Position numbers and translations under genes: made by a program | In this document: positions 18,416 to 43,660 of the stretch, in pieces | Position numbering within the stretch: the first letter of the stretch is position 1 | Layout of the letters: every line of letters begins with the position of its first letter | The notes under the pieces: model-generated | What the model was told of the DNA's origin: nothing | What the model saw: only the letters and a program-made list of their open reading frames with translations | The model's database searches: none | Assembly (NCBI RefSeq): GCF_004375085.3 | Contig: NZ_SNAQ03000002.1 | Coordinates: 124,001 to 188,000 of the forward strand | Source of the DNA: Lewinella sp. W8 | GTDB lineage: Bacteria; Bacteroidota; Bacteroidia; Chitinophagales; Saprospiraceae | DNA length: 64,000 nucleotides | Direction of reading: 5' to 3'

Positions 18416-21187
18416 TCAACGCACCAGGCCAATCAGGCTCCGGTAATCGTCAAAGCGGGCGTCCTCCTGTTCCATTTCCAGTAGGTCGTCGTGGGGCACC
18501 TCCAGATACAGATCCTCCAGGAAGCCAAGGGTTTCCCGGCACCGGATTTCTACCTTCCCTTCGGCCAGTTGTTCCCAGCGCCAGTTGAAGGTATTGCGAA
18601 TCCTGGTCAGGGTTTGCTGTTGTACGACGGTAAAGTCGTCGGCGGCCGGTACCGTCTCAATCTGCGTAAAGGCCAGTTCATTTCTGGCCATCAGCAGAGC
18701 ATCGCGGATGATGTAATAGGCCGTATGTACGCAGTCCGTATCGCCCGTTCGCAAAAAGTCCGCGTAGAGGCAGAGTTGGAGATCCTTAGCGTTACGAATC
18801 AGGTTTCTGAACACGGACTTACCCCGCCACTTCAGGTCAACGACGGCAAATTCCTGCTTGCCGTCCTTGCTCCGCTCGAGCACCAGGTCCGCACGCCCGG
18901 TAATTTGTTGCCCCCCCATGGGAGCTAGTTCTCCCTCCAGCTTCATTTCCGAGCCGTGGACCTTCCAACCGTTGCGCTGAATGTAATCCACCAGCGACCA
19001 GGCCGCGTAGTGTATGGTCCGGATAAATTTAATCCGCTCGGGCTCCTGACCGTATTCGAGCAATACGGCCCCCTCGGTCGCCAGCAACCGCTCCGCATGC
19101 TGATTGATCCACGCCCCGACGTCCTCGCGGGAATAACTGCGATCATCCGCTTTGATCTGTCGTAGCAGACGTTCGATGAATAGGTGGCTGAGGTTACCCC
19201 GCAGCCGGTTCTCTGAAGCAATGGATAGTATCGGCGCTCCCTTCAGGGCCAACCGGTGTCGAAACACCCACTTGTAGGGATAATACAGCAGGTCTTCTAC
19301 GGCGGTGGGGGTCTCCATCTCCCGGGGAACGATGGGCTGATCGTCTCCGAGTTGCAGCACGGGTACGGGGGTAGCCAGCAGGTCCAAAGGCACGGGGGCG
19401 AAGGACGGTAATCGCAAACCAAACCGGTCCGAGGTGGCCTGCCCTCCCGCATCTACGTTGATGGTGATTTTTTCCAGTGCTCCGTCCGGGAAGGCCGCTT
19501 CCAGGTCTCCCCACAGCGGATGCGGCTCCATGGGGCTGCCGTCCACCCGATCCGGCACGCACAGCACCAGCTGTCGCTGCGCTACGGCCAGGGGCCGGAG
19601 GCTTTGCCAGATGGACAACTCATTGCTTTCTCCGGGACCGTTCAGGGAAATCCCCCGTTCGTTCAGGTAGGATAATTCTTCGGGATAGTGGCGACTAAAA
19701 AAGTAGTCGGATTCCGTTTCCACAAAGTCCCACCAGATCAGACCCTCGGTTGGTTCATAACCGGGAATACTGGCCGCGGAGGCGGGAGAGTAAATGACGG
19801 ACAGGGAGCCCTGTTCCTTGACCTCGAACTGGAGGGGGGCGGGCTCGTAAACCGTTCGTACCAGCCGTTCCACGCCGAGATAGTTCAGGCCCTCTTCCGG
19901 CAGGACGTCCAGCAATTCAATCGCACGTTGACACTGGGCGGCCAGGACCAGCAGGCCCGAATGGGGCTGCTGATCGTCGTAATTTTCCCGAGCCCAGTTC
20001 CCCAGGGTCAGGAACAACTTCCGAATCTCCGTTTTGGGCACCCGCTCTTCCCGCGGGTACTGGCTACGCCGAAACCAGGTTTCGTACTGCTGTCGTACGT
20101 CGCTGATCCGACCATCGGACCATCCGCGCACCTCCTTCATTTCGGTAAAAAAGCCTTCGAGCATGGCCACCCACCGCCGGCCGAACAAGCCCGGAGTATC
20201 CGCCAGGAAATAGGCGATCCGCTGCCCCAGCCGACGGTCGAGGGGTTTGGTCACCAGGCTCACGAATTCCATGATTCGCTCCACTTCGATGGGTTCCCAG
20301 AGGAAGGCGGTGATCAGCTTGAGTACCTGCAGGGTCGGGCGGGCCAGGGAGGTGGTGGGCACCCCCATACTCGGTAGTCCCTCGGCCAGCAGGGCATTGT
20401 CCAGGGTTTGGTTCCGGCGGGGCATGAGTACTCCGGGCCTCCAGTCGTTGTTGTCCCGCAAGGTCCGGGCCAGGTAAGCCGCCAGGTGGGTTTCGCGCTG
20501 GGCCCGGAGGATGATCAGGCTCCCGTCTCCCGTCAGCGGACCGGGAGCATCCTTCCCCAGCATCAGCGACCGCCAACGGCCGAGATCCGAATCCGTCGCC
20601 CCGGTAACGGGTTCGGGTAGGGGTTGCACGGAAGTTCCGGCATCCGCCAGGGCACCCAGTAACCGCCGCGTTCCGGGGGGCAGCAGATGCCGGGGTTCGT
20701 GATGGAACAGCTCGAAAGCGGGGTGCCTGGCTTCCGGGAGTACGGACAGCAGCATATTCAGGCGGTCCGCCGGACCGGCCATCAGGTTCAGGGCCAGACG
20801 GTCGTCCAGCAGCAGGGCTTCCACCTCGTGGAGCACGCGAATCCTGGTGGGAGTTTCCGCTTCCGGAGCAACGCCCAGGAGGTATCCGGCGCTGAGCAAT
20901 TCGTCTCGCCGGCTCAGTAGTTCTTCGGCGGTGGCGAAGGGGTCCGCCCGAAAGGAGTGGGCGTAGAAGGGTACGGCATCCGCCCGGGAGAGGTGTTCCT
21001 GTAGCAGCTGCCGGTACTGCTCCACGCGCAGCGCCCGCCTGTTCACCCGTGGGGTACCCAGCGCGTAGAATTGTTCCAGCCAGGCCAGCAGGCCATCGGG
21101 ATCCATTAAATGTTGGTCCATGCTCGCCGCCGGAGGGCTGCCGAGCTGATGTTGGTCCGCAAAAGAAAGACCCAGAAAAATTGTCAT
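18416..21187 (-). CDS. AddB/RexB-like PD-(D/E)XK nuclease family protein
   Basis: A 923-residue protein. The C-terminal third carries a RecB-type nuclease core: GRADLVLERSKDG (about residue 760) and VVDLKWRGK (about 780) provide the acidic residues and lysine of the PD-(D/E)XK motif, preceded by the LSHLFIERLL helix. The N-terminal part (for example DGLLAWLEQFYAL, FYAHSFRADPFATAEELLSRRDEL) follows the helicase-like half of AddB proteins, but no Walker A motif is visible. Expected role: recombination or repair nuclease subunit; no AddA partner is in the window. I use the ATG at 21187 (MTIFLGLSFADQH), which matches the short beta-strand start of such proteins. Confidence 0.75.
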   Translation of the reverse strand: MTIFLGLSFADQHQLGSPPAASMDQHLMDPDGLLAWLEQFYALGTPRVNRRALRVEQYRQLLQEHLSRADAVPFYAHSFRADPFATAEELLSRRDELLSAGYLLGVAPEAETPTRIRVLHEVEALLLDDRLALNLMAGPADRLNMLLSVLPEARHPAFELFHHEPRHLLPPGTRRLLGALADAGTSVQPLPEPVTGATDSDLGRWRSLMLGKDAPGPLTGDGSLIILRAQRETHLAAYLARTLRDNNDWRPGVLMPRRNQTLDNALLAEGLPSMGVPTTSLARPTLQVLKLITAFLWEPIEVERIMEFVSLVTKPLDRRLGQRIAYFLADTPGLFGRRWVAMLEGFFTEMKEVRGWSDGRISDVRQQYETWFRRSQYPREERVPKTEIRKLFLTLGNWARENYDDQQPHSGLLVLAAQCQRAIELLDVLPEEGLNYLGVERLVRTVYEPAPLQFEVKEQGSLSVIYSPASAASIPGYEPTEGLIWWDFVETESDYFFSRHYPEELSYLNERGISLNGPGESNELSIWQSLRPLAVAQRQLVLCVPDRVDGSPMEPHPLWGDLEAAFPDGALEKITINVDAGGQATSDRFGLRLPSFAPVPLDLLATPVPVLQLGDDQPIVPREMETPTAVEDLLYYPYKWVFRHRLALKGAPILSIASENRLRGNLSHLFIERLLRQIKADDRSYSREDVGAWINQHAERLLATEGAVLLEYGQEPERIKFIRTIHYAAWSLVDYIQRNGWKVHGSEMKLEGELAPMGGQQITGRADLVLERSKDGKQEFAVVDLKWRGKSVFRNLIRNAKDLQLCLYADFLRTGDTDCVHTAYYIIRDALLMARNELAFTQIETVPAADDFTVVQQQTLTRIRNTFNWRWEQLAEGKVEIRCRETLGFLEDLYLEVPHDDLLEMEQEDARFDDYRSLIGLVR

Positions 21188-30408: not shown

Positions 30409-33400
30409 ATGAGTCAAGACAAGCAGGTTGACAAGGCGGTTAAAAAACAGCGGCTGAAGCGGCGATGGAGCCGGGGTCGCAAGGCCTTTGTCTGGCTCAT
30501 CACCATACTGGCCATTTTGGTGGGAGCGAGTCAGCTCCCCATCGTGCAACGGATGCTGGCGGACTACGTCACCCACCGGCTCTCGAACACCCTGGAAACC
30601 ACCGTCAAGGTTGATGAGGTATACATTTCCTGGCTCAACGAGTTGTCCCTGGACGGGCTGTTCATTGAAGACAAGTACGGAGATACGCTGCTTTACAGTC
30701 AGCACCTCGAGGCCGACTTCAGTTTTTGGGGTGGGTTGCAAATCAACGGCATCCTCATTTCCGGCACGCAGTTCAAAATTCGTCGGGACCTGGGGGATCC
30801 GGAAACGAACCTGAAGTCCGCCCTAGATCGTTTGTTTCCCCCGAAGGAGGAGAAGAGCAATCCGCTCAACCTCAAGCTGAACCGCCTTGATCTACGGGAC
30901 ATTTCCTTTGTTCAGTCCGATAGTGTCCGGGGGCAACGGTTTGACGTCACCCTGGAGTCGGGCGTCATCCGACTGGATGACCTCGACCTGCCCAACGGAT
31001 TGATTGCCATCGGGAAGGCCGAATTGCGGCGCCCCATTGTCCGACAAACCAGCATATCACCTAATCCGCTGGACAGTCTGCTCCTGGTCATTGATTCTAC
31101 CCTCGTCTCGCAGGCGGAGGATACCGCCTCCCTGCGATTTCAGGCCGAATCGTTTGAGATCATCGACGGCAGTTACATTCTGGACAACTTCCGCAAGGAC
31201 CCCATCGCCGCGGCGGACATTACCGCCGTGGACTTCGCCCGACTCGGAACCGAGAACGTTGACCTGGAACTGATTGACGCCTCCTTTGAGGATTACGAAC
31301 TCCGGGCGGCCCTGAAGCACCTGAGCCTGGAAGAAAAGTCCGGCTTCGTACTGGACCGGCTGAGCGTGGAGGACCTCAAAATCACCCCCACGGAATTACA
31401 GCTCTATGACCTGAAGCTGGTGACCGCCGAAAGCTCTCTTTCGGACAGCCTTCACTTCCGCTTCCGGAACGGATGGGACAGTTGGTCGGACTTCAACGAC
31501 GAAGTTCGGATGGACATCAAGGTCCAGGAAAGTGAAGTTGCCGTCCGGGACATCCTCTACTTCGCCCGTAACCTGAGATTTAACCAGTTTTTCCGCGATA
31601 ACCGTAACCGGACCATTCGGCTGGGGGGTAACATCCGCGGGCGGGTCAACAACCTGAGTGCCCGTGACGTGACCCTGGCCCTGGACGAACAGACCTACCT
31701 GGCCGGTGAGTTTTCGTCGCGTAATCTGGCCAAGAAAGGTTCCGAGGCCCTGAACCTCAAGCTGGACTACCTCAACACGGATATGTTCACCCTGCGGCGA
31801 CTGCTTACGGGCTTCGCTCCGCCACCGAACTTTGATCGCCTGGGGCGCTTGCGCTTCAGTGGCCGTTTTGATGGCTTCTTCACCGATTTTGCCGCGAAGG
31901 GTAACCTGGTCACGGACATCGGCGCCGCCGCGCTGGACATGAGCATGGACATCGGGAATGGTTCCGCCAATGCCGATTATCGGGGGGCGCTACAGCTCTC
32001 CAATTTCGACCTTGGTGCCTGGACCCAGAACCCCGATTTCGGGATCGTCAACTTCAACGGCGCCATCCGCAACGGCTCGGGGCTGGTGGCCGCTACGGCC
32101 ACCGCCGACCTGGAGGCCGTGATTCAGGATTTTACCTTCCGGGACTATACCTACCAAAACGCCCGCATCGATGGCCGGCTGGAAAACCGGTTTTTCAACG
32201 GAAGTTTTGACATCGAGGACGAGAACATTGACTTCAACTTCCTCGGAGAGCTCGACTTCCAGGACAGCATTCCGGTTTTTGACTTCGACGCTACCGTAGG
32301 CGAACTTGACCTTCAGGCCCTCAATCTGAGTAATCGCCCGATCACCCTATCGGGAAAAGTTGATCTGAACGTCATCAACACCGTCTTCAGTGAAATGGAG
32401 GGTCGGGTTGACCTCGACAGCTTCCGGGTATTGCTGGACACCGTGGCGATCGACATCGATAGCCTGTTGGCGTACTCCGTATTCGACGAGGAGGGGCAGA
32501 AAATCGTGAAACTGGAAAGTGACATTGCGCGTGGGGAGGTGGTCGGTAGTTTTGATTTGGATGACCTGACGACGAGCGTTACCCGCTACCTGCGGACCTA
32601 TTACCCGGGCTGGGCCCGGCGCCTGAACCTGAAGGCTCCGCGCAACATTCCTCCCCCCAACCGCTTCAGCTTTGACCTGACCATCATTGACTCCAAGGGA
32701 CTGAACCGGCTCCTGGCGCCCAAGCTCGGCCCGCTGGTGGACGTTCAGCTGATTGGTAGCTACGATGGATTTACGGATCAGTTACGGGCGGAACTGCTGG
32801 CGCCCAGCTTTTCCTTCGACAACTTTGAGTTTCGGGATTTAATCCTCCGCACCAAGGGAGAACGGGAAGAGGGCGAACTCGATATTCTCATTGATTCTAC
32901 CCTCGTCAACGGACGCCCCCTGCTGAATCAACTTACGCTCCTGAGCCTGATTACGCAGGATACGGTGCAGTTTGGCCTGACCTACGGTGGAGAGGAGGAC
33001 AATATCCTCCTGAGTAAGGTGAACCTGAACGGTAATTTATTCCTTCCGGACTCCACCAACTTTGAGTTGAGCTTTGATGAGTCCCTACTCGTGCTCTTTC
33101 AGGAACAGTGGGAAATCCGGCCGGACAATTACATCACCTTCGGTCCGCAGTTCATCGACACCCGAAACTTCGCCCTGAGCAGTGGCAACCGTAGGATTCG
33201 GCTCAACAAGCGGGGCCGGAATGGCCTCAACCTGGACTTCATCAACATGAACCTGGGGCTCATCGACTCCGTATGGAATTACCAGCCGTTGGATTTCAGC
33301 GGCGAGGTAGACGTCTACGCTTCGGTGGACGACGTCTTCCTGCTGGAGGGACTGAACGCGGAGGTCCGTTCGGACACTTTCCTCATGAACGGCGAAGATT

Positions 33401-35244
33401 ACGGGTACCTCCGGATGGACCTTCGCACCCCCAACCCACGGGGGCAGCTGACGGCCTTCATGAACCTCAACCGGGATACGGCCCAGCTCATCGCGGAGGC
33501 CACCTTTAACCTGGCCGATCTCGTCCCCAATGACCCCCTACCCCGCCAGCGTAAGAACTACCTTGACATGAGCATCAACATCAACGGCTATCCGTTGGAG
33601 TTGGCCAAATACTGGGTAGGAGGCTCCGTATCCGACATTGCGGGAGAGTTCAGTGCACGGATGAACGTGGTCGGGCCAACGAAAAAACTGGACGTTGACG
33701 GATACATCGACGCCACGGCGGGAGCCTTTACCATTGATTACCTGCAAACCCGGTATCGCTTCTACCAGAGCCGGGTAAACATTGACAACAAACTCTTTGA
33801 CCTGACGGGCACCACGCTCATTGACCGCCTCGGCAACCAGGCGTCCCTGAGCGGTGGCGTGACCCATGACCGACTGAAAAATCTCGGGCTCAACGCCCGC
33901 ATCGATACCGACCGATTCCTGGCGCTGGAACTGGCTCCCGGAGAGAATCCGAACTTCTACGGCCGGGCCGTCGGCAACGGCAGCGTCTTCTTCACCGGAG
34001 ATTTCCGGCAGCCGGACATCTACGTCCGTGCCACTGTCGGACGCGACAGTCGCCTCTCCATCCCGGTTGATTACGGTAGTGAGGCCGGACCGATCGATAA
34101 TGTTCGCTTCGTAAACCGGAGTATTTACACCGAAGAAGAGCCCAATACGGTTGCGGAAGAGCCCACCGGCGTCAGCCTGGAGTTGGAGCTGGAGGTGACC
34201 GAAGAAGCGGTGGGTGAGATCATTTTTGACGAAGAAGTCGGTGACATTTTGCGGGGCCAGGGCAACGGTGACCTGACCCTGCGGATTCCCCGAGACGGAG
34301 ACCTCCAAATGTTTGGCACCTACACCATCACGGAGGGAGACTACCTCTTTACTTTCTACCGGGTAGTGAACAAGGAATTCACCGTACGCCCGGGCGGAAC
34401 GGTGACCTGGGAGGGCAACCCCTTTGAGGCCCGCATTGACATCCGGGCGGATTACGAAAACCTGAGTACGCCAATCCTGAATTTCATTCAGGAATACCTC
34501 ATCACGGACGCAAATTCCAACCTCACCACCCTCGCCAGTCAGCCCACTGAGGTGGATTTGATCCTGGAGTTATCGGGCATTCTGACCCAACCAAACATCA
34601 GCTTCGACATTTCTTTCCCGGAGCTCGACGGCCAGCTGGAAAGCTACGCCAACAACAAGCGGCGCTTACTGCTGCTCGACCAGAACGAATTGAACCGCCA
34701 GGTCTTCGGACTCATCGTCGTCGGGCAATTTCTCCCGTCCGACCTGTCCTTTAACGGATCGGACGTTGCCGTCAATACTGTCAGCGAATGGCTGTCCAAC
34801 TACCTGAGCCTCCTGTTCAATGACCTGCTCAAGGATGCCTTCGGGGAAGACGCCTTCATCTCCTCCTTCGAATTTGACTTTGCCTACAACAGTTACCGCA
34901 ATACCGGGCTGGACGAGAACACCGACGGTCGTAGCCAGGCCGTAGAATTTTCTTTCCGGCGCGACTTTAACAACCGCTGGACCCTGCGCGGAGACGTGAA
35001 CTGGCTGGACAATAATCTGACCCCCGAGGGGGCTTCCGGAGCCTTCGTGGGGAATGACCTCATCATTGAATACGTCCTCAATGATGCCCGTTCTCTCAAG
35101 CTGCGGTTTTACCAGCGTTTCAAGCCGGACGTAGCCAGTAGTGCCCGCCTGGAAATTGGCACGGGCTTGTCCTGGCGGAGGGAATTTGACTCCCTGAAAG
35201 AACTGTTCCGGGGGCTGAAGGAGGACGTTAACGAAAATAATTAA
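30409..35244 (+). CDS. tamB: TamB-family translocation and assembly module protein
   Basis: A 1611-residue AsmA/TamB-type envelope protein, thought to bridge the two membranes and to move lipids or assist outer-membrane protein assembly. It has a basic N-terminus, one membrane span (about 27-46, AFVWLITILAILVGA), a very long run of repeated beta-strand segments, and the C-terminal DUF490 region with YTITEGDYLFTFYRVVNKEF and GGTVTWEGNPFEARIDIRA (about 1300-1340). The Bacteroidota form is longer than E. coli TamB. No BamA-like TamA partner lies nearby. Its stop overlaps by 4 bp the convergent stop of the next gene. Confidence 0.9.
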   Translation: MSQDKQVDKAVKKQRLKRRWSRGRKAFVWLITILAILVGASQLPIVQRMLADYVTHRLSNTLETTVKVDEVYISWLNELSLDGLFIEDKYGDTLLYSQHLEADFSFWGGLQINGILISGTQFKIRRDLGDPETNLKSALDRLFPPKEEKSNPLNLKLNRLDLRDISFVQSDSVRGQRFDVTLESGVIRLDDLDLPNGLIAIGKAELRRPIVRQTSISPNPLDSLLLVIDSTLVSQAEDTASLRFQAESFEIIDGSYILDNFRKDPIAAADITAVDFARLGTENVDLELIDASFEDYELRAALKHLSLEEKSGFVLDRLSVEDLKITPTELQLYDLKLVTAESSLSDSLHFRFRNGWDSWSDFNDEVRMDIKVQESEVAVRDILYFARNLRFNQFFRDNRNRTIRLGGNIRGRVNNLSARDVTLALDEQTYLAGEFSSRNLAKKGSEALNLKLDYLNTDMFTLRRLLTGFAPPPNFDRLGRLRFSGRFDGFFTDFAAKGNLVTDIGAAALDMSMDIGNGSANADYRGALQLSNFDLGAWTQNPDFGIVNFNGAIRNGSGLVAATATADLEAVIQDFTFRDYTYQNARIDGRLENRFFNGSFDIEDENIDFNFLGELDFQDSIPVFDFDATVGELDLQALNLSNRPITLSGKVDLNVINTVFSEMEGRVDLDSFRVLLDTVAIDIDSLLAYSVFDEEGQKIVKLESDIARGEVVGSFDLDDLTTSVTRYLRTYYPGWARRLNLKAPRNIPPPNRFSFDLTIIDSKGLNRLLAPKLGPLVDVQLIGSYDGFTDQLRAELLAPSFSFDNFEFRDLILRTKGEREEGELDILIDSTLVNGRPLLNQLTLLSLITQDTVQFGLTYGGEEDNILLSKVNLNGNLFLPDSTNFELSFDESLLVLFQEQWEIRPDNYITFGPQFIDTRNFALSSGNRRIRLNKRGRNGLNLDFINMNLGLIDSVWNYQPLDFSGEVDVYASVDDVFLLEGLNAEVRSDTFLMNGEDYGYLRMDLRTPNPRGQLTAFMNLNRDTAQLIAEATFNLADLVPNDPLPRQRKNYLDMSININGYPLELAKYWVGGSVSDIAGEFSARMNVVGPTKKLDVDGYIDATAGAFTIDYLQTRYRFYQSRVNIDNKLFDLTGTTLIDRLGNQASLSGGVTHDRLKNLGLNARIDTDRFLALELAPGENPNFYGRAVGNGSVFFTGDFRQPDIYVRATVGRDSRLSIPVDYGSEAGPIDNVRFVNRSIYTEEEPNTVAEEPTGVSLELELEVTEEAVGEIIFDEEVGDILRGQGNGDLTLRIPRDGDLQMFGTYTITEGDYLFTFYRVVNKEFTVRPGGTVTWEGNPFEARIDIRADYENLSTPILNFIQEYLITDANSNLTTLASQPTEVDLILELSGILTQPNISFDISFPELDGQLESYANNKRRLLLLDQNELNRQVFGLIVVGQFLPSDLSFNGSDVAVNTVSEWLSNYLSLLFNDLLKDAFGEDAFISSFEFDFAYNSYRNTGLDENTDGRSQAVEFSFRRDFNNRWTLRGDVNWLDNNLTPEGASGAFVGNDLIIEYVLNDARSLKLRFYQRFKPDVASSARLEIGTGLSWRREFDSLKELFRGLKEDVNENN

Positions 35245-37604
35245 TTGGTCTCCGTTATCCCATCGTCCAAAGCCCGTAAGTGCTCGACGAGCCGATCAAT
35301 CTCCGCTACTTTATCGCGCCACAGGCTTAATGCATCGATGGTGATCAGGTCGAACCCCAGGGTACGCAGCTCCCGTTGCCGCCAGGCTTCGGCCATCGGG
35401 TCGGCCCGCCCCGGAAGCCAGCCGTCCGGAAGTAGAATGGCCTTTTTGCCGTTAGGCGAAGTAACTTCCAGGGGAAGAAAGGTGTCCCGCCAGGGACGAT
35501 GACGGCTGAAGAAGTGGTTGGGTAGTCGCTGCTTCAGGACGGGAAGCAGGTATTCGGTCATCGGGTGGGGTTCCAGGGCCGGCAAACCACATCGACGGCG
35601 AACCTCCCGGCCGATGGCCAGTAGGGTCCCCTGATCGAAGGGTTCTCCCCCGGCCGCCTCGGCGGCCCGGATGAGGGCCGCCGCCAGAAAGCGGGCGTTC
35701 AGCCCGTCACTGATCAGCGCCTGCGTCAGGGCGTTGGCGTCCCAGTCGTGAAAGAGCGTCACCCGGTCACCCAACAGGAGAATGGAATCCCAGTATCGTC
35801 TGATCCAGGTCTCATCCTCCTCCGAAAGGCTAGTGGGAACGTACAGGCAAAGGTCCTTGATGTCCCGTCCTTTCCAATGGTCAAAATGCTGCCAGTCTCC
35901 CGTATCTTTTTCCGCAAAGGCCAGGCGGCCATCACTGCCCGCGGGCGGCTGGTCTACCCCGACGGCGCGCCATTCCGGGGCCGTCAGCACGGCAAATTCT
36001 TGATGAAACAACAGTCCTGGTCGGCGCCACCCCGCCGTACGCAGGGGCACGGCAGATGGCTCATCGAGGTGTTTCCAGTGGTACCGAAACGCGAAAGCAG
36101 CGTCCCCGTCCCGATCCTCTCGGGTAAGGTCAATCAATACTTCCCGATCATTCAGGGGAGACGGCCATTCGCTGTCCTCACGGACAACGACCCGTAGTCC
36201 GGAAGTTCCGGCGGGGGTCCGGCGAACCTGGAGGGCGTGCTTTTCCAACTGTTCCGCAACGATCTTCAGGTCAACGGGTTCCCGTTGCCCTTCCCGGCCG
36301 ATGGCCTCTCGATCCAGGCAACGCTCAAAATACCAACCATCGAAGGCCTTACGCCAATCCGCCCGGGGGGCATCCAGTAGCGGAGCCAGTAACCTTCTCA
36401 GTTTTGCCGGTTGAGCGTACCAGAAATGCCGACGGTGATAAAAGGCTTCCAGCTGCCCCAGTTGTTGTTCGGTATTCCGTAATTGTTGCACCAGCTCCCG
36501 AACCGCCAGTAATTGTCGGTGGCTGGTGGCCGCCTCTCCCCTGCCCACCGGCAATTGATAGAGCCCCGCCTCATTGATGGTTCTCAACAGGGCCCGTAGT
36601 CGCTGCTCCACTTCCTGAAAAGCTTCGGGCTTACCCAACTGGGGGTTTACCGTCAGGGGACTCAATCCCAGTCCATCGGCCCTCACCTGCCGATTGGTCG
36701 CCGTCATCTTTTCCTCAATGGCCGTTTCTTCTGCCGCCAGCCAATTACGTATCGCTTCTGCGGACGATAGCTGATCCGCCGTCGGGGAGTCGGTTTCCCA
36801 GGCATCCGCGTACCGGGCCAGGTCCGGCAGGAGTTGGCCAATTAATTTCTTCTCCTTGCGCCCCTTCGCGGGGAGCTTATCCATTACCAAATCCCGGAGG
36901 GCACGCAACTCCCGAAGGCGCTGCCCCAGGCTGCGCTGGGCCCGGAAGAGGGACTGGCGGGAATAATCGTTGAGCAGCAGGGAATACTGTCGTTGCAAAT
37001 CTTCCGCCTCCCCCAGGAAATAGTGGATCTGTTCCTCAATAGTTTGCTTGCATTCCGCCAGGCTCTGGTGTCGGAAAAAGCCGGTATTCAACGATTCCAG
37101 TGCCGCGGGAACGGGGCCCAGTTTTTCGTACCTCCGACGGGTTTGCTCCAATCGCTCGGACAAGTCCAGGTATTCTTCCGGAGTAAACTCAAAATCTTCC
37201 GTAGAGATGAAGGGACTAAGTAACAGCGCATCATCTTCTTCCGCTGCCGGAAGCCAGAATCCGACCGTTTGTGAAAAGTCATGCGGTCCGAAAATGGTCC
37301 GCTCCGTCGGTGTGAAAACCTTTGGCAGAACGGCTTTCGGCGGAGCGTCACCGGAAGTGCCGTCCAACAAGAAGCCAATTTCCGCCAGATACTTCCGGTA
37401 CCGATCCAATTCCTCCCGGGTATTCACCAGGAGGCAGACCGGGGTTCCACCGGAGAGAAAAGCTGCCGTAAGCTGGAGTCCATAAAAAAGGCCGCCGATT
37501 CCCCGGGTTTGGACTGATTTTTGGTTAAAAAAATCACGAATAAGGGGATAAAGCCCGTAAACAACGGGTAACCCTCGCCAACTTTCTAGGTGAATTTTAT
37601 TCAC
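35241..37604 (-). CDS. large protein resembling a decayed SF1 helicase with a nuclease-like C-terminus
   Basis: A 787-residue protein without signal or membrane segments. By pattern it follows large DNA2/Upf1-type SF1 helicases of the phylum: GIGGLFYGLQ (35-44) then SGGTPVCLLVNTREELDRY fits the P-loop helix and following strand but lacks the G-K-[ST]; a long helical insert has ALESLNTGFFRHQS, SPLTVNPQLG and DWRKAFDGWYFERCL; the C-terminus, TFLPLEVTSPNGKKAILLPDG then MAEAWRQRELRTLGFDLI, resembles a Vsr/DUF559-like endonuclease with its acidic residues mostly gone. Expected members are over 1000 residues. Probably non-catalytic; family assignment is inference, and it may be a novel domain protein. 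Confidence 0.5.
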   Translation of the reverse strand: MNKIHLESWRGLPVVYGLYPLIRDFFNQKSVQTRGIGGLFYGLQLTAAFLSGGTPVCLLVNTREELDRYRKYLAEIGFLLDGTSGDAPPKAVLPKVFTPTERTIFGPHDFSQTVGFWLPAAEEDDALLLSPFISTEDFEFTPEEYLDLSERLEQTRRRYEKLGPVPAALESLNTGFFRHQSLAECKQTIEEQIHYFLGEAEDLQRQYSLLLNDYSRQSLFRAQRSLGQRLRELRALRDLVMDKLPAKGRKEKKLIGQLLPDLARYADAWETDSPTADQLSSAEAIRNWLAAEETAIEEKMTATNRQVRADGLGLSPLTVNPQLGKPEAFQEVEQRLRALLRTINEAGLYQLPVGRGEAATSHRQLLAVRELVQQLRNTEQQLGQLEAFYHRRHFWYAQPAKLRRLLAPLLDAPRADWRKAFDGWYFERCLDREAIGREGQREPVDLKIVAEQLEKHALQVRRTPAGTSGLRVVVREDSEWPSPLNDREVLIDLTREDRDGDAAFAFRYHWKHLDEPSAVPLRTAGWRRPGLLFHQEFAVLTAPEWRAVGVDQPPAGSDGRLAFAEKDTGDWQHFDHWKGRDIKDLCLYVPTSLSEEDETWIRRYWDSILLLGDRVTLFHDWDANALTQALISDGLNARFLAAALIRAAEAAGGEPFDQGTLLAIGREVRRRCGLPALEPHPMTEYLLPVLKQRLPNHFFSRHRPWRDTFLPLEVTSPNGKKAILLPDGWLPGRADPMAEAWRQRELRTLGFDLITIDALSLWRDKVAEIDRLVEHLRALDDGITETN

Positions 37605-37868
37605 ACGGCAATACTTTTATGCAACTATTCATACTCTTAAACCGTATTTCAGGAGGGTTTTCTCCGCACAAACATAATACGGAAGCAAGCGAGCGAAAAG
37701 TTTTAGCAATTTTGGCGCTTTTTTTGGTGCTTTACCGGATTTTATCCCAAGTGGGAGTACGGATTCCCGCTTACGGTCACCTATCTTTAAAGAGGGCAAA
37801 GGGCCGAAACAAGCTACGCCTCTTTTCATACTCACCGTTTAGCCTTATTGACCCAAAACCACCGAATT

Positions 37869-38636: not shown

Positions 38637-39227
38637 CTATTCCTTGATGCCACCGGAGACGCGCTCACCGTTTTCGTACAGATACTCCAGGGTAACTTCC
38701 CCCGCGTCGTTAAAGTATCGTAAGGGGCCGTGCTGCACGCCCATTTTGTAGTGTACCTCCTGCTTAATTTTTCCGTTGCGGAAATCAAACTCGGCGAAAA
38801 CACCGTCCAGTTTTCCGTCTACGTAGGTGGCCGTTTGCTCGGCGCGCCCAATCCGGTATTTGGCGAAGGGACCGTGATATTCGTTGGCCCGGTAGTTCGC
38901 CATCAGGTTTACCCGACCTTGGGGGTCAAATTCCAGGTAGGGACCATTGAGGACCCCGTCGACGTAACTGGTGATGGATTCCGGCAGGTAGGACTCCGTA
39001 GTGTAGGTCGTCCAGGCGCCCTGTTTCAGGCCATTGTGGATGTAGCCCTCTTCAATGATTTTACCGAGCGGATCCCGCTTGACGGCGTGTTTGGATTCCG
39101 TACCCGGAACTTCGGTGAGTTCATATTCCGTACCGTCCACCGTGGCCTTCACCGGTGCGGGAGCCGTTGGCTGGTCACAGCTCATGATCATCAGTGAAAG
39201 GCATAACCCAAAGATGTAGCGCATCAT
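38637..39227 (-). CDS. MORN-repeat (YwqK-like) lipoprotein
   Basis: A 196-residue lipoprotein: signal MMRYIFGLCLSLMIMSC with lipobox IMSC, then repeated MORN-type units of the form G-x-x-x-G-x-W/F (EGYIHNGLKQGAWTTY, VDGVLNGPYLEFD, EYHGPFAKY, VDGKLDGVFAEFD, MGVQHGPLRYF). Such proteins are often auto-labelled YwqK antitoxin, but no toxin is here and the lipobox argues for an envelope role. A TACCTTCG box (39242-39249, minus) sits just upstream. Converges on the PAS-AraC gene with 6 bp between stops. Confidence 0.8.
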   Translation of the reverse strand: MMRYIFGLCLSLMIMSCDQPTAPAPVKATVDGTEYELTEVPGTESKHAVKRDPLGKIIEEGYIHNGLKQGAWTTYTTESYLPESITSYVDGVLNGPYLEFDPQGRVNLMANYRANEYHGPFAKYRIGRAEQTATYVDGKLDGVFAEFDFRNGKIKQEVHYKMGVQHGPLRYFNDAGEVTLEYLYENGERVSGGIKE

Positions 39228-40012: not shown

Positions 40013-40178
40013 CCATCCATCACCACCCACCTCCCGTATTCCAAGCCTTTAGCGGGAAAAATGCCCAAATTGTCGATCCGCTGGCCGAAAAGTAGGCCTC
40101 CGGGCAAACGAATACCCCCGACTACGGTTTTCTTTGCGAATTGACACTACCCTTGATTTACCATTAAACGAATTGCAC

Positions 40179-41510
40179 ATGCTATTAAGGAGATGTTGCG
40201 CTCTGCTAATTATGGCCCTCTGGGCGGCTGGCGTAAGCGCACAAACCAACATTGAGTTCACGAAATACACCCTGGACAACGGACTTAAAGTCATCCTGCA
40301 TCAGGACAACAGCACCCCGATCGTGGCGGTGTCCATCATGTACGAGGTGGGAGGAAAAGACTCCTTCGAAGGACGGACGGGCTTTGCCCATTTCTTCGAG
40401 CATCTGCTCTTTGAGGGCAGCAAGCACATCGGCCGGGGTGAATTCACCAAATACGTCGAAGAGGCCGGTGGTGTCCTGAACGCCAATACGAGCCAGGACC
40501 GCACCTACTACTACGAAATCCTGCCCAGCAACCAACTGGAGCTGGGCCTGTGGCTGGAAAGTGAACGCCTGCTTCACGCCGTCGTCAATCAGGAAGGCGT
40601 GGAGACCCAGCGGGAAGTAGTAAAGGAGGAGCGTCGTCAGAGTTACGACAACCGCCCCTACGGTCAGCTGCTGTACGAACTCTTCAAGCACGGCTTCCGG
40701 GAGCACCCCTACAAAGACCCCAACATCGGCTACATGGAGGACCTGAACAGTGCCCAGGAAGAGGACTACAAGCGTTTCTACGAAACCTACTACGTGCCCA
40801 ACAATGCCATCCTCTCGATTGCGGGTGACCTCGACATCGAGCAGACCAGGGCCCTCATCGAAAAGTACTTCGCCGACATTCCCGCCGGAGCCGAACCGCC
40901 CCGGGTCACGACGGTGGAGCCGCCGCTGGGCGGGGAAGTCCGCGACAGCATCTGGGACGCCAAGGCTCCCCTGCCGGCCCTCGTGATGGGTTACCGTACG
41001 CCCGAGCGCAATCACCCCGACTACTACGCCATAAGCATGATGAACCAGGTGCTCAGTCAGGGACAAAGTTCCCGCCTGAATAAAGTGTTGGTGGACGAAA
41101 AACAGCTGGCGGTCCAGGCGGGTTCCTTCCCGAGTTTCACCCAGGGCCCCGGCCTGGCCATTGCGTTTGCCTTTGGCAAACCCGGCAGTGACCTCAAGCC
41201 CATTGAGGAAGTCTTCAACCAGGAGGTGGAGAAAATGCAGACCGAGCTCATCACGGAGCGGGAATTCCAGAAACTGCGCAACCAGATTGAAGCCAACGCC
41301 ATTTCCGGCTACGGCACCATGTCGGGCATCGCCGAGGGACTGGCTAACTACGAGATGTATCAGGGAGACGCCAACCTGATCAATACGGAAACCGAACGCT
41401 ACATGCGGGTGACCCGGGAAGATATCCGCCGGGTAGCCAAAAAATACTACACCAAAGACAATCGCGTGACCCTTTACTGGGTGCCGGGAAGTAAGGAAGA
41501 CTCCAAGTAA
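40179..41510 (+). CDS. M16-family zinc peptidase, catalytic
   Basis: A 443-residue exported insulinase-type metalloprotease. Start at 40179 (MLLRRCCALLIMALWAAG) gives a signal peptide ending VSAQ. The inverted zinc motif H-x-x-E-H is intact in GFAHFFEHLLFEGS (about residues 68-81), with the distal Glu expected in the following helix (VVKEERRQSYDNRPYG region). Likely degrades peptides in the periplasm. It is followed after 41 bp by a second M16 protein lacking the zinc motif, the usual two-chain pairing of this family. Confidence 0.9.
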   Translation: MLLRRCCALLIMALWAAGVSAQTNIEFTKYTLDNGLKVILHQDNSTPIVAVSIMYEVGGKDSFEGRTGFAHFFEHLLFEGSKHIGRGEFTKYVEEAGGVLNANTSQDRTYYYEILPSNQLELGLWLESERLLHAVVNQEGVETQREVVKEERRQSYDNRPYGQLLYELFKHGFREHPYKDPNIGYMEDLNSAQEEDYKRFYETYYVPNNAILSIAGDLDIEQTRALIEKYFADIPAGAEPPRVTTVEPPLGGEVRDSIWDAKAPLPALVMGYRTPERNHPDYYAISMMNQVLSQGQSSRLNKVLVDEKQLAVQAGSFPSFTQGPGLAIAFAFGKPGSDLKPIEEVFNQEVEKMQTELITEREFQKLRNQIEANAISGYGTMSGIAEGLANYEMYQGDANLINTETERYMRVTREDIRRVAKKYYTKDNRVTLYWVPGSKEDSK

Positions 41511-41551
41511 TTCCTCCCTTACCCCTCCCCTTCACCCGAAAAGAAAAAAAC

Positions 41552-43660
41552 ATGCAACGTATCTTTTTTGGCCTTCTGGCCCTATTACTAATAGCTGCTT
41601 GCTCTACCCCACAGCAAAGCACCACCAATACTTCCACTACGCCCACCATGGAGAAGGACTTCCGGGCGGAACCGCCCGCTCCCGGGCCGGCACCCGAGAT
41701 CCAGTTGGGGGACTTTCAGGACTTTAAGTTGGACAACGGCCTTCAGGTCGTTCTCGTGGAAAACCACAAACTTCCGCGGGTCAGCTACCAGCTCTTCGTT
41801 GACGTCCCTCCCCACCTGGAGGGCGAATATGCGGGTGCCGGTGACATGATGGGCAGTATGCTCCGCCGAGCCACCTCCACCAAAACGAAGGAGGAAATTG
41901 ACGAGGCCGTTGACTTCATTGGCGCCTCCCTTTCCACCAGCAGTTCGGGGGCCTTTGCCGCCACCATCAGCAAGTACAAAGAAGACTTGTTGGAGATGAT
42001 GTCCGAAGTAGTACTGGACGCCCAATTCCCCGAAGCGGAATTTGCCAAAGTAAAGTCGGAGGCGGAGGCCGGACTGGCACAGGCCCTGACCGACCCCGGT
42101 GCCATCTCGCAGCGGGTTCGTCGGGTAATGTACTACGGAGCCGACCACCCCTACGGTGAATTGACGACCGAGGAAAGCCTGGCCAACGTCACCCTCGACG
42201 TAGTCAAAGACTACTACGAAACCTATTTCGTGCCAAACCGTAGCTACCTGGTCATGGTCGGAGATCTCACCCGGGAGGAAGCCGAGCGGCTGGCCAAGTC
42301 CGCCTTCAGCGACTGGAAGCCCGGGCGGGTTCCCGTCCCCAGCTACGCTACTCCCAAGCGGCCGGAGGGCGTGAAGGTCTCCTTTGTCCCCCGTTCCGGA
42401 GCGGTACAATCCAACATCACCATCGGTCATCCGGTAGAACTGGAGCCCGGTAACACGAGAGCCATCCACGCCAACATCATGAATCAGATTCTGGGGGGCG
42501 GTGGCTTCAGCAGCCGCTTGTTCCAAAACATCCGGGAAGACAAGGGATACACCTATGGTGCTAATTCAAGCCTTTCCAATGATGAGCTGGTGGGGAACCT
42601 GCGGGCCTTCGCCAACGTACGCAACGAGGTGACGGATTCGGCCATCGTCGAATTCCTCTATGAACTGAATAAAATCAGCACCGAGCCCGTCATGGCCAGT
42701 GAGCTGGAGCGCACCAAGAAGCAGATTACGGGAAGTTTTGGTCGGGCCCTGGAAAGTCCCCAGCGGATTGCCAGCTACGCCCTGAACACCATCCGCTACG
42801 GCCTGGACCGTGACTTCTACCCCACCTACCTCCAGCGCGTGGAAGCCACCAAAACGAGTGACCTACTGAAGGTAGCCCAGGAACTGGTGTCTCCGAAAAG
42901 TACCCACATCATCGTAGTGGGAGACAAAGCCGTGGCGGATAAACTCGCCCGCTTTGCGACCTCCGGGAAGGTGGACTTCTATGACGCCAGTGGTAACCCG
43001 ATTGACATGGCCGCCATGGAAGCCCCCACGGATCTCGATCCCGAAACCGTAGTTGCCTCCTACCTCGACGCCATTGGTGGAAAAGATCAACTGATGAAGG
43101 TGGAGAACATCGCCATGACCATGGAAGCCTCCATCCAGGGGCAGACCATCCAGCAGACGATGTTCAAGTCCGGTGGAGATAAGTTCAGCAGTCAGACGAA
43201 AATGATGGGACAGGTCATGGCCGATCAGCGGTTCAACGCCGGTAAGGCTTCCATCACCCAGATGGGCAACAAGACTCCTTTGGCCGAGGAACAAATTGCC
43301 GCGTTGAAGAGCCAGTCCGCCCTGTTCCCGGAGATCGCCTGGATGGACAGTCCCGAAAACCTTTCAATTGAGGGTACGGAAATGGTGGACGGAAAGCCCG
43401 CCATCATTCTGGCCGTCGCCGAAGGAGAAAATACGGTTCGCTATTTCTTTGATCAGGAGACGGGGATGAAAGTACGGTCCGTCACCCAGCAGGGCCCCAC
43501 GACCATCACCACTACCTTTTCCGATTATCAGGAAGTAGGTGGTGTGAAGTTCCCCCACGTCCTGAAGGTAGAAGGTGCCATGCCCTTCCCGCTGGAAATG
43601 AAGGTGATTGAACTCAACGTGAATACGGAAATTGACCCGGCGCTCTTTAAAGTAGAGTAA
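41552..43660 (+). CDS. M16-family non-catalytic lipoprotein subunit with LolA-like C-terminal domain
   Basis: A 702-residue lipoprotein (signal MQRIFFGLLALLLIAACS, lipobox IAAC). Residues 50-480 form an M16 fold, but where the zinc motif belongs the sequence reads EYAGAGDMMGSMLRR, so it cannot bind zinc there; GGGFSSRLFQNIREDKGYTYG is the conserved R/Y pair of non-catalytic partners. From about 500 onward (ASYLDAIGGKDQLMKVENIA) a separate domain of antiparallel strands resembles LolA/LppX-type lipoprotein or lipid carriers. Operon partner of the upstream catalytic subunit. The fusion suggests the protease works at the outer membrane on a lipid-linked or surface partner (inference). Confidence 0.85.
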   Translation: MQRIFFGLLALLLIAACSTPQQSTTNTSTTPTMEKDFRAEPPAPGPAPEIQLGDFQDFKLDNGLQVVLVENHKLPRVSYQLFVDVPPHLEGEYAGAGDMMGSMLRRATSTKTKEEIDEAVDFIGASLSTSSSGAFAATISKYKEDLLEMMSEVVLDAQFPEAEFAKVKSEAEAGLAQALTDPGAISQRVRRVMYYGADHPYGELTTEESLANVTLDVVKDYYETYFVPNRSYLVMVGDLTREEAERLAKSAFSDWKPGRVPVPSYATPKRPEGVKVSFVPRSGAVQSNITIGHPVELEPGNTRAIHANIMNQILGGGGFSSRLFQNIREDKGYTYGANSSLSNDELVGNLRAFANVRNEVTDSAIVEFLYELNKISTEPVMASELERTKKQITGSFGRALESPQRIASYALNTIRYGLDRDFYPTYLQRVEATKTSDLLKVAQELVSPKSTHIIVVGDKAVADKLARFATSGKVDFYDASGNPIDMAAMEAPTDLDPETVVASYLDAIGGKDQLMKVENIAMTMEASIQGQTIQQTMFKSGGDKFSSQTKMMGQVMADQRFNAGKASITQMGNKTPLAEEQIAALKSQSALFPEIAWMDSPENLSIEGTEMVDGKPAIILAVAEGENTVRYFFDQETGMKVRSVTQQGPTTITTTFSDYQEVGGVKFPHVLKVEGAMPFPLEMKVIELNVNTEIDPALFKVE

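What the first reader, a model, noticed from the sequence alone, without database searches (positions are those of the whole stretch)
35241..37604. Candidate pseudo-helicase-nuclease: SF1-like scaffold without P-loop and with an eroded endonuclease domain
Seen: GIGGLFYGLQ in the position of a Walker A loop, followed by SGGTPVCLLVNTREELDRY as in SF1 helicases; helical insert motifs (SLN, SPLTVNPQLG, AFDGWYF); C-terminal segment like Vsr/DUF559 endonucleases but with PLE for the metal acid and LLPDG for the E-x-D. Family knowledge from memory. Inference: a catalytically dead regulator or decoy derived from a DNA2-like helicase, conserved as a full-length ORF.
Basis: partly seen in the sequence, partly recalled or inferred. 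Interest (0 to 1): 0.65.

Follow-up and report, generated by a model that had tools for sequence, protein, structure and literature searches.

The report
Conserved dead helicase-nuclease protein
This bacterial gene makes a protein descended from a DNA-unwinding and DNA-cutting enzyme that has lost its motor and its cutting residues, yet evolution keeps it intact, so it probably works by binding rather than by catalysis.

Summary
Window 35241-37604 (-) encodes a 787-aa protein whose GIGGLFYGLQ sits at the Walker A position of ~1250-aa UPF1/DNA2-type SF1 helicases with a C-terminal Vsr-like nuclease domain. Both conserved acids of that domain are lost (FLPL for FRID, LLPDG for IECDG). The P-loop is only part of the loss: about 320 residues with motifs II-V are replaced by a spacer that matches nothing. 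The helical arm and the Vsr fold remain. This is not recent local decay: all 12 orthologues found in 21 genus genomes lack GK[ST]. One close P-loop-less pair has dN/dS 0.12 overall, 0.04 in the dead nuclease domain and 0.63 in the motor remnant. Shared neighbours show positional orthology across the family. At this locus P-loop state changes 10 times on the tree (bootstrap 9-11, at least 6 forced), and none of 100 sampled proteins keeps both nuclease acids. A PAS-AraC regulator is divergent beside it in 12 of 12 genus loci, with a candidate operator pair. Most likely it is a RecC-like pseudo-helicase-nuclease acting by binding; its partner is unknown.

The parts
35241..37604 (-). pseudo-helicase-nuclease gene, 787 aa, GTG start
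37371..37523 (-). remnant of the first RecA domain (aa 28-78), P-loop to motif Ia
   Evidence: E 5e-5; relaxed constraint, dN/dS 0.63 for aa 1-95, in the pair G116/G385
37488..37511 (-). vestigial Walker A, QTRGIGGL (aa 32-39) where relatives have GxxxxGK[ST]; [RK]GxG is kept in 12 of 12 genus members, the lysine in 4 of 12, the S/T in 0 of 12
36303..37319 (-). helical arm (aa 96-434), the SF1 insert; mostly confident in the model
   Evidence: dN/dS 0.062
35835..36302 (-). variable spacer (aa 435-590) in place of motifs II-V of the long relatives; low model confidence
35565..35834 (-). tail of the second RecA domain and following helix (aa 591-680)
   Evidence: E 4e-4; dN/dS 0.089
35244..35564 (-). 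pseudo-nuclease domain of Vsr/DUF559/MTES_1575 type (aa 681-787), the most constrained part
   Evidence: 3hrl Z 9.3, 3r3p Z 9.0; dN/dS 0.039
35469..35471 (-). L712 at the first nuclease acid (FRID in the active-looking relative, FLPL here)
35421..35435 (-). LLPDG (aa 724-728) at IECDG of the active-looking relative; E replaced by L725
37848..38630 (+). divergently transcribed PAS-AraC (PAS_9 + HTH_18) regulator
38637..39227 (-). MORN_2-repeat protein (26.4 bits, below the Pfam cut-off of 29.6) with a lipoprotein-like signal read by eye; conserved neighbour
37626..37635 (+). candidate operator copy 1, TATTCATACT
37823..37832 (+). candidate operator copy 2, TTTTCATACT, 197 bp from copy 1
30409..35244 (+). 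tamB, convergent neighbour in 8 of 12 genus loci; not thought to be a functional partner

Best explanation
It is a pseudoenzyme: the vertically inherited, shortened and catalytically dead descendant of a UPF1/DNA2-like SF1B helicase with a C-terminal Vsr-type PD-(D/E)XK nuclease domain. Shown by comparison: descent, loss of ATPase and nuclease residues, absence of the segments with motifs II-V, purifying selection in close relatives, repeated loss of the P-loop at the same locus in other genera. Inferred: the working parts are the helical arm and the dead nuclease domain, which bind a partner (protein or nucleic acid) without cutting or moving, much as RecC uses dead helicase and nuclease domains; the ancestor had already gained this binding role, so the motor became dispensable. 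Also inferred: expression is tuned by the divergent PAS-AraC regulator. Which ligand is bound is not known.
For: Homology segment by segment; Vsr-like fold of the C-terminus (Z 9.3 and 9.0) and UPF1/IGHMBP2/Dna2 fold of a long relative (Z 19-20). P-loop absent in 12 of 12 genus orthologues, each an open frame of 714-890 aa. dN/dS of P-loop-less pairs with finite dS: G116/G385 0.12, G290/G213 0.157, G020/JAGFJD 0.152, G137/G327 0.062; of P-loop-bearing pairs 0.061, 0.076, 0.119, 0.072 (the last an outgroup pair) and 0.142 for a near-identical pair (dS 0.02). By segment in G116/G385: 0.039 nuclease, 0.062 arm, 0.63 motor remnant. 10 changes of P-loop state on a 90-row tree, bootstrap 9-11, at least 6 forced. 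None of 100 proteins keeps both nuclease acids. Positional orthology: 37 of 43 loci (33 of 39 without four repeat records) have at least one of PAS-AraC, MORN or the beta-lactamase-domain gene nearby. No second family member in the genome.
Against: No biochemistry. Only the N-terminus is clearly basic; the arm, spacer, tail and nuclease domain are near neutral or acidic in most members, so nucleic-acid binding is not favoured by composition. Nine of 21 genus genomes lack the gene, one clade and thus one loss, so it is dispensable. The segment-wise dN/dS for short forms rests on one pair (dS about 0.9); pairs that include the window protein itself are saturated and give 0.25 and 0.35. The model is unreliable over aa 436-676 and the N-terminus. 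Some long relatives look like near-complete ATPases, so ATP use may still matter in part of the family.
Confidence: 0.6

Rival explanations
1. Decaying pseudogene: an enzyme gene on its way out, its ORF intact by chance.
For: The motor remnant evolves under relaxed constraint (dN/dS 0.63); 9 of 21 genus genomes lack the gene; genus relatives are only 31-44% identical to it over the matched parts.
Against: 12 of 12 genus orthologues are open over 714-890 aa (the one TAA reported for G377 lies at the end of its 843-aa frame). dN/dS 0.12 overall and 0.04-0.09 in arm, RecA2 tail and nuclease domain of one pair. Nearly invariant new motifs such as WRDxFLPL in the dead nuclease domain.
Confidence: 0.05
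2. A domesticated or still working defence protein: relative of the Hhe/PDC-S37 helicase-nuclease candidates, sensing phage or damaged DNA without its own catalysis and signalling through the neighbouring genes.
For: Long relatives match PADLOC PDC-S37 (E 9e-33 to 8e-17 in 5 of 8 scanned) and Hhe (E 2e-15 to 1e-4 in 6 of 8), each over parts of the models; sequence turnover is fast; presence is patchy in the genus.
Against: The window protein itself matches no PADLOC model up to E 1. The locus is inherited among tamB, beta-lactamase-domain, amidase and MORN genes, which does not look like a mobile island; a McrBC component does lie near one of three long loci whose neighbours were scanned.
Confidence: 0.2
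3. Co-regulator of the PAS-AraC protein: the pair forms one sensory switch, perhaps for cell-envelope genes nearby.
For: Divergent adjacency in 12 of 12 genus loci and in 12 distinct long-form records; same 12 of 21 genus genomes; direct-repeat operator candidates near both starts in half of the genus loci; envelope-type neighbours.
Against: Absence in the other 9 is a single loss event, so the co-occurrence counts once. PAS-AraC is in only 75 of 398 family genomes at E 1e-40, while 247 of 398 match the helicase profile at E 1e-6 (some of them other helicases). Adjacency may reflect regulation only.
Confidence: 0.15
4. A cryptic enzyme that still binds ATP or cuts nucleic acid with other residues.
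For: [RK]GxG is kept in 12 of 12 at the old P-loop and the lysine in 4 of 12; the D of LPDG is kept in 11 of 12 genus members and 93 of 100 proteins.
Against: The segments with motifs II-V are absent; both conserved nuclease acids are gone in 12 of 12.
Confidence: 0.05

Closest known systems
RecC of RecBCD (dead SF1 helicase plus dead PD-(D/E)XK domain; PMC1185551, passages read)
   Same: Both helicase and nuclease parts are inactive while the protein is kept for non-catalytic work.
   Different: RecC is a subunit beside active RecB and RecD (its UvrD-like class is recalled). This protein is UPF1/DNA2-like with a Vsr-like domain, has lost most of the motor, and has no known partner.
Ssd1/Dis3L2 pseudonucleases of fungi (PMC8097288, abstract and outline read)
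   Same: Active site lost repeatedly (at least four times there) while another function is kept.
   Different: Unrelated enzyme (RNase II), eukaryotic, with a known RNA-binding role.
Deinococcus radiodurans PriA pseudohelicase (PMC4504706, abstract and outline read)
   Same: Bacterial helicase orthologue with lost motifs and a retained role, shown biochemically.
   Different: SF2 (recalled), no nuclease domain mentioned, known pathway.
SF1 helicase plus MTES_1575-type Vsr-like REase proteins (family named in PMC3710099, passages read; active-looking relatives L209-L211)
   Same: Common ancestor and domain order.
   Different: L209 keeps GPPGTGKS, DEASQ, QGDERD, TRAK and FRID...IECDG; none of these is left here.
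YprA helicases with inactivated Vsr domains in Druantia I/II (PMC12458937, a bioRxiv preprint held in PMC, passages read)
   Same: An inactivated Vsr-type C-terminal domain on a helicase.
   Different: Another helicase superfamily (SF2, recalled), defence systems.
PADLOC PDC-S37 and Hhe
   Same: Long relatives match parts of these models.
   Different: The window protein matches neither; the genomic setting differs.

Membership tests
SF1B (UPF1/DNA2-like) helicase | Walker A GxxxxGK[ST] | tested here: not met
   QTRGIGGL in the window protein; 0 of 12 genus members keep it
SF1B (UPF1/DNA2-like) helicase | motifs II, III, V and VI | tested here: not met
   aa 435-590 match nothing in the long relatives; motif III Q, V glutamate and VI arginine 0 of 12 genus members, by alignment column
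SF1B (UPF1/DNA2-like) helicase | descent from a protein with this fold | tested here: met
   profile matches; long relative Z 20.1 to IGHMBP2, 19.2 to Upf1, 19.0 to Dna2
Vsr-like / MTES_1575 PD-(D/E)XK nuclease | fold | tested here: met
   aa 678-781, Z 9.3 over 93 residues to 3hrl and 9.0 to 3r3p; Foldseek alone gave 3hrl E 0.47, probability 0.99; element order
Vsr-like / MTES_1575 PD-(D/E)XK nuclease | catalytic acids D and E-x-D | tested here: not met
   L712 and L725; 0 of 12 genus members keep the D or the E
Vsr-like / MTES_1575 PD-(D/E)XK nuclease | Pfam PF18741 gathering score | tested here: not met
   14.6 against 38.2 bits
Hhe or PDC-S37 defence candidates | match to the PADLOC model | tested here: not met
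   no family up to E 1; long relatives match in part
Hhe or PDC-S37 defence candidates | protection from phage | not testable with these tools
   needs an experiment
pseudogene | loss of purifying selection and broken frames in relatives | tested here: not met
   12 of 12 frames open; dN/dS 0.12 in the one unsaturated genus pair
RecC/AddB-type pseudo-helicase | UvrD-like descent and subunit of a helicase-nuclease complex | tested here: inconclusive
   the long relative's best folds are UPF1/DNA2-like; no complex tested
pseudoenzyme (as a way of working) | no catalytic activity but a retained function | not testable with these tools
   predicted from sequence and selection only

The most novel reading that the evidence does not exclude
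An ancestral helicase-nuclease at one fixed locus of this bacterial family acquired a second, non-catalytic job early. After that the ATPase was discarded independently some six to ten times and most of the motor at least once (this genus and the other short forms, by one shared or two separate truncations), leaving a binding protein made of the arm and the dead Vsr domain. In this genus it works as the partner of a PAS-AraC sensor that loops the ~195-bp region between the two genes. This would be a bacterial parallel of Ssd1 and of RecC, evolved from a different helicase class.
Probability: 0.3. Interest if true: 0.75.

Novelty: new variant of a known kind. Interest (0 to 1): 0.62.

Why it matters
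Dead helicases are known mostly one at a time (RecC, D. radiodurans PriA). Here a single orthologous locus in one bacterial family shows a series of stages, from near-complete helicase motifs, through single P-loop substitutions such as GLEGTGRT, to loss of most of the motor, with selection still acting on the remainder. That makes it a natural series for asking what a helicase-nuclease does besides hydrolysing ATP and cutting DNA, and it warns that a helicase label does not imply activity.

Tried and rejected
Single-sequence searches (Pfam, NCBIfam, PADLOC, PDB) gave nothing usable; the PDB match to a MarR regulator (E 0.005, aa 280-369) lies in a helical stretch and was dropped. Foldseek with the whole model gave no match at E <= 0.001; matches of the arm to SMC/JetABC, PI3K linkers and others are of the kind the tool warns about for long helices and were not used. 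Mitoribosomal chains also match the C-terminal domain (Z 8.0 and 7.7), so that fold match is clear but modest. No match of the RecA remnant appeared, which is not evidence of absence.

Co-occurrence with PAS-AraC (12 of 12 against 0 of 9 at E 1e-30) and MORN (9 of 12 against 0 of 9 at E 1e-15) looked like a strong functional link until the tamB tree showed the nine lacking genomes to be one clade (rooted on G377); it is one event. In the family, by my own comparison of the lists, 68 of 75 PAS-bearing genomes also match profile A1 at E <= 1e-6, against 179 of 323 others; that threshold also admits other SF1 helicases.

Motif counts: of 109 aligned proteins 47 lack the P-loop pattern. For one search I dropped seven cut or partial rows (L085, L183, L097, L195, L198, L204, L205) and two outgroup-like rows (L196, L197), leaving 100, of which 41 lack it. 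For the quick tree six cut rows were dropped (103 rows, 9 changes); for the careful tree 13 more, seven short forms and six with long branches (90 rows, 10 changes); both trees keep outgroup-like rows. Strict column counts for motif III (1 of 81 long) were misleading; a relaxed pattern finds 16 of 81, so I do not claim that the whole family is a dead helicase. Proteins were chosen for diversity, with short forms fetched on purpose, so fractions are not prevalences. Saturated dS pairs were not used as evidence.

I first wrote that the motor was lost at least twice. On the quick tree rooted on outgroup-like rows, the seven other short forms and the 12 genus forms make one clade (support 97, long branches meet there). 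Against that, all seven score higher with the long-form profile than with the genus profile, and several keep more of the first RecA domain than the genus does. One shared truncation or two is open.

The operator motif was noticed by eye in the same sequences in which it was then counted, and the 185-205 bp range was set after seeing the spacings, so its statistics are optimistic. Three of 12 genus regions (G116, G385, G335) have no copy with at most one mismatch, nor do 10 of 12 long-form regions. In L117 and L121 the first copy overlaps an in-frame ATG of the gene (read by eye), so part of its conservation may be a translation start.

Literature searches: 'pseudohelicase' (3 papers), PDC-S37/Hhe/DUF4011 (4), MTES_1575 with helicase (2), inactive-helicase terms (5), Saprospiraceae/helicase/pseudoenzyme (27, 10 listed), pseudonuclease (7), PADLOC candidates (4), Lewinella/helicase/nuclease/Vsr (150, 8 listed). 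No listed title or abstract start described this family; beyond the five papers opened only listings were seen.
Full report
WHAT IS THERE. The ORF at 35241-37604 (minus strand, GTG, 787 aa) exists as described and all quoted strings are in it. It is single-copy in its genome: searched with the protein, the only other match up to E 10 has E 0.06; searched with the long-form profile, the only other match at E <= 0.01 is a 674-aa frame with E 0.0017. That frame has intact helicase motifs (GPPGTGKT, IIDEAAQ, GDPYQLPP, GFQGRERD, ALTRAK) and looks like an ordinary IGHMBP2-type helicase (label by eye). So no active member of this family was found for a decoy to act on.

WHAT IT DESCENDS FROM. In 120 genomes of the same family, 52 hold a match to the protein; most matching frames are 1200-1300 aa. 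Long forms match, mostly weakly, Pfam AAA_11/AAA_12 and MTES_1575; one of the 16 relatives scanned (L051) reaches the MTES_1575 cut-off. The AlphaFold2 model of one long form (L061, pLDDT 84) is closest in fold to IGHMBP2 (Z 20.1), Upf1 (19.2) and Dna2 (19.0). Profile comparison in segments gives the anatomy of the window protein: aa ~28-78 match the P-loop/Ia region, aa 96-434 the helical insert, aa 435-590 nothing, part of aa 591-680 the segment after motif VI, aa 681-785 the nuclease domain. In the model of the window protein (mean pLDDT 60) most of the arm and aa 681-778 are confident, the latter with the order helix, three strands, helix, strand, helices, and match the Vsr/DUF559-type structures 3hrl (Z 9.3) and 3r3p (Z 9.0) (the family label of 3hrl is recalled). 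aa 436-676 and the N-terminus are not confident.

WHAT IS LOST. Against an active-looking relative from another family of the class (L209: GPPGTGKS, DEASQ, QGDERD, TRAK, FRIDLIV, IECDG) the window protein has QTRGIGGL at the P-loop, no segment for motifs II-V, L712 at the first nuclease acid and L725 at the second. In the genus, [RK]GxG is what 12 of 12 share of the P-loop; 4 of 12 keep the lysine, none the S/T.

NOT A LOCAL ACCIDENT. Of 21 genomes of the genus, 12 hold an orthologue. All 12 are open (714-890 aa) and lack GK[ST]. The nine that lack the gene form one clade on a tamB tree, so it was lost once there. The closest pair, G116/G385 (82% identical, dS 0.92), has dN/dS 0.12. By segment it is 0.63 for the motor remnant, 0.062 for the arm, 0.15 for the spacer, 0.089 for the RecA2 tail and 0.039 for the dead nuclease domain. 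The dead nuclease domain is thus the most constrained part, with WRDxFLPL nearly invariant in the 12. This rests on one pair and counting estimates; pairs with the window protein itself are saturated (0.25 and 0.35).

ONE LOCUS, REPEATED LOSS. The same neighbours lie beside long and short forms: a MORN-repeat lipoprotein-like gene, a divergent PAS-AraC gene and, in long forms, a beta-lactamase-domain gene (called GH3BL; the GH3 part of that label is recalled), followed in some by an amidase. 37 of 43 examined records (33 of 39 without four repeat records) have at least one of MORN, PAS-AraC or the beta-lactamase-domain gene within about 1.8 kb; the six without include short contigs. In eight of the 12 genus members tamB lies on the other side, convergent; for G379 the contig ends too soon to tell. 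These are positional orthologues. Among 100 uncut proteins (81 long, 19 short) 22 long and all 19 short lack the P-loop motif. By alignment column the nuclease D is kept in 10, the E in 2, both in none; the motif VI arginine in 24; motif II D and E in 39 and 43. Six forms of 1014-1050 aa keep the P-loop but are largely gapped over motifs IV-VI (L051, L187, L193, L199, L201, L202), so parts of the motor go in different orders. On a careful 90-row tree of the arm, P-loop state changes 10 times (bootstrap 9-11; at least 6 forced by well-supported branches). Since a P-loop is unlikely to re-evolve, these read as losses (inference). Some long forms (for example L080, L081, L094) look nearly complete as ATPases, so the family is graded and not uniformly dead. 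P-loop-less long forms are constrained too: G290/G213, GTAGTGKK and GSAGTGKK, dN/dS 0.157 at dS 0.33. Whether the short forms of this genus and the seven other short forms share one truncation is open: they form one clade on the outgroup-rooted quick tree, but the seven resemble long forms more than the genus forms.

REGULATION. In 12 of 12 genus loci the PAS-AraC gene is divergent and next to the pseudo-helicase gene (window). The intergenic regions carry TTTTCATACC-like sites: 16 with at most one mismatch in 24 regions (12 genus, 12 long-form), all in one orientation, 0.6 expected from the rest of the loci; 9 of 12 genus and 2 of 12 long-form regions have one. In 6 of 12 genus regions two copies with at most two mismatches lie 193-202 bp apart; of 300 shuffles none had more than one such region. 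In the window TWTTCATACY occurs twice in 64 kb, at 37626 and 37823 (0.25 expected, 2 of 100 shuffles as many). The motif was chosen from the same data, and copy 1 can overlap a start codon, so this is a lead.

HOW IT MOST LIKELY WORKS. Selection on a dead nuclease domain and a helical arm, with the motor discarded, points to binding without catalysis. RecC is the best working model: its helicase and nuclease domains are both inactive and serve recognition and DNA threading (PMC1185551, passages). Ssd1 in fungi shows the evolutionary pattern proposed here: a second function first, then repeated loss of the active site (PMC8097288, abstract). D. radiodurans PriA shows a helicase orthologue thought to keep its role without ATPase (PMC4504706, abstract). 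The ligand is open; domain charges are near neutral or acidic in most members except at the N-terminus, which leaves a protein partner as likely as DNA.

KNOWN OR NEW. The domain class is known: the MTES_1575 REase was described as a Vsr-type domain in a protein with an SF1 helicase (PMC3710099, passages). Inactivated Vsr domains on other helicases are known (PMC12458937, passages). I found no description of this family in the listings. I rate it a new variant of a known kind: a pseudo-helicase-nuclease of UPF1/DNA2 descent, with serial inactivation at one locus.

CONFIDENCE. Descent and loss of catalytic residues: about 0.95. Functional protein and not a pseudogene: about 0.9. Repeated loss in the family: about 0.85. 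Binding role of arm plus dead nuclease domain: about 0.6. Any named ligand or pathway: 0.2 or less each.

Noticed in passing
window 37605-37847: Two direct copies of TWTTCATACY, 197 bp apart, the only two in the 64-kb window; similar pairs (193-202 bp) recur in 6 of 12 genus loci, this one included, between the same two genes.
   Followed up: partly
window 38637-39227 and L044-L048: A MORN-repeat, lipoprotein-like gene lies directly upstream, same strand, of very divergent short P-loop-less family members (gaps of 32-121 bp); whether these were shortened together with this genus or apart is open.
   Followed up: partly
window 18416-21187: 923-aa protein with a PDDEXK_1 nuclease domain (PF12705), possibly AddB/RecB-like; whether its helicase part is intact was not checked.
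   Followed up: no
window 40134-43660: Two adjacent M16 peptidase genes, found in the same order beyond the PAS-AraC gene in six of the 11 other genus loci as fetched.
   Followed up: no
L188-L190 (G290, G048, G213): Long forms with GTAGTGKK or GSAGTGKK: a near-perfect P-loop with K in place of S/T, shared by three related genomes; the pair G290/G213 is under purifying selection.
   Followed up: partly
L051, L187, L193, L199, L201, L202: Family members of 1014-1050 aa that keep the P-loop but align with gaps over motifs IV-VI, as if the second RecA domain had gone first.
   Followed up: no
L069 5367-6590: A McrBC component gene (PF10117) lies near a long form, the only restriction-type protein among the neighbours scanned at three long loci.
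   Followed up: no
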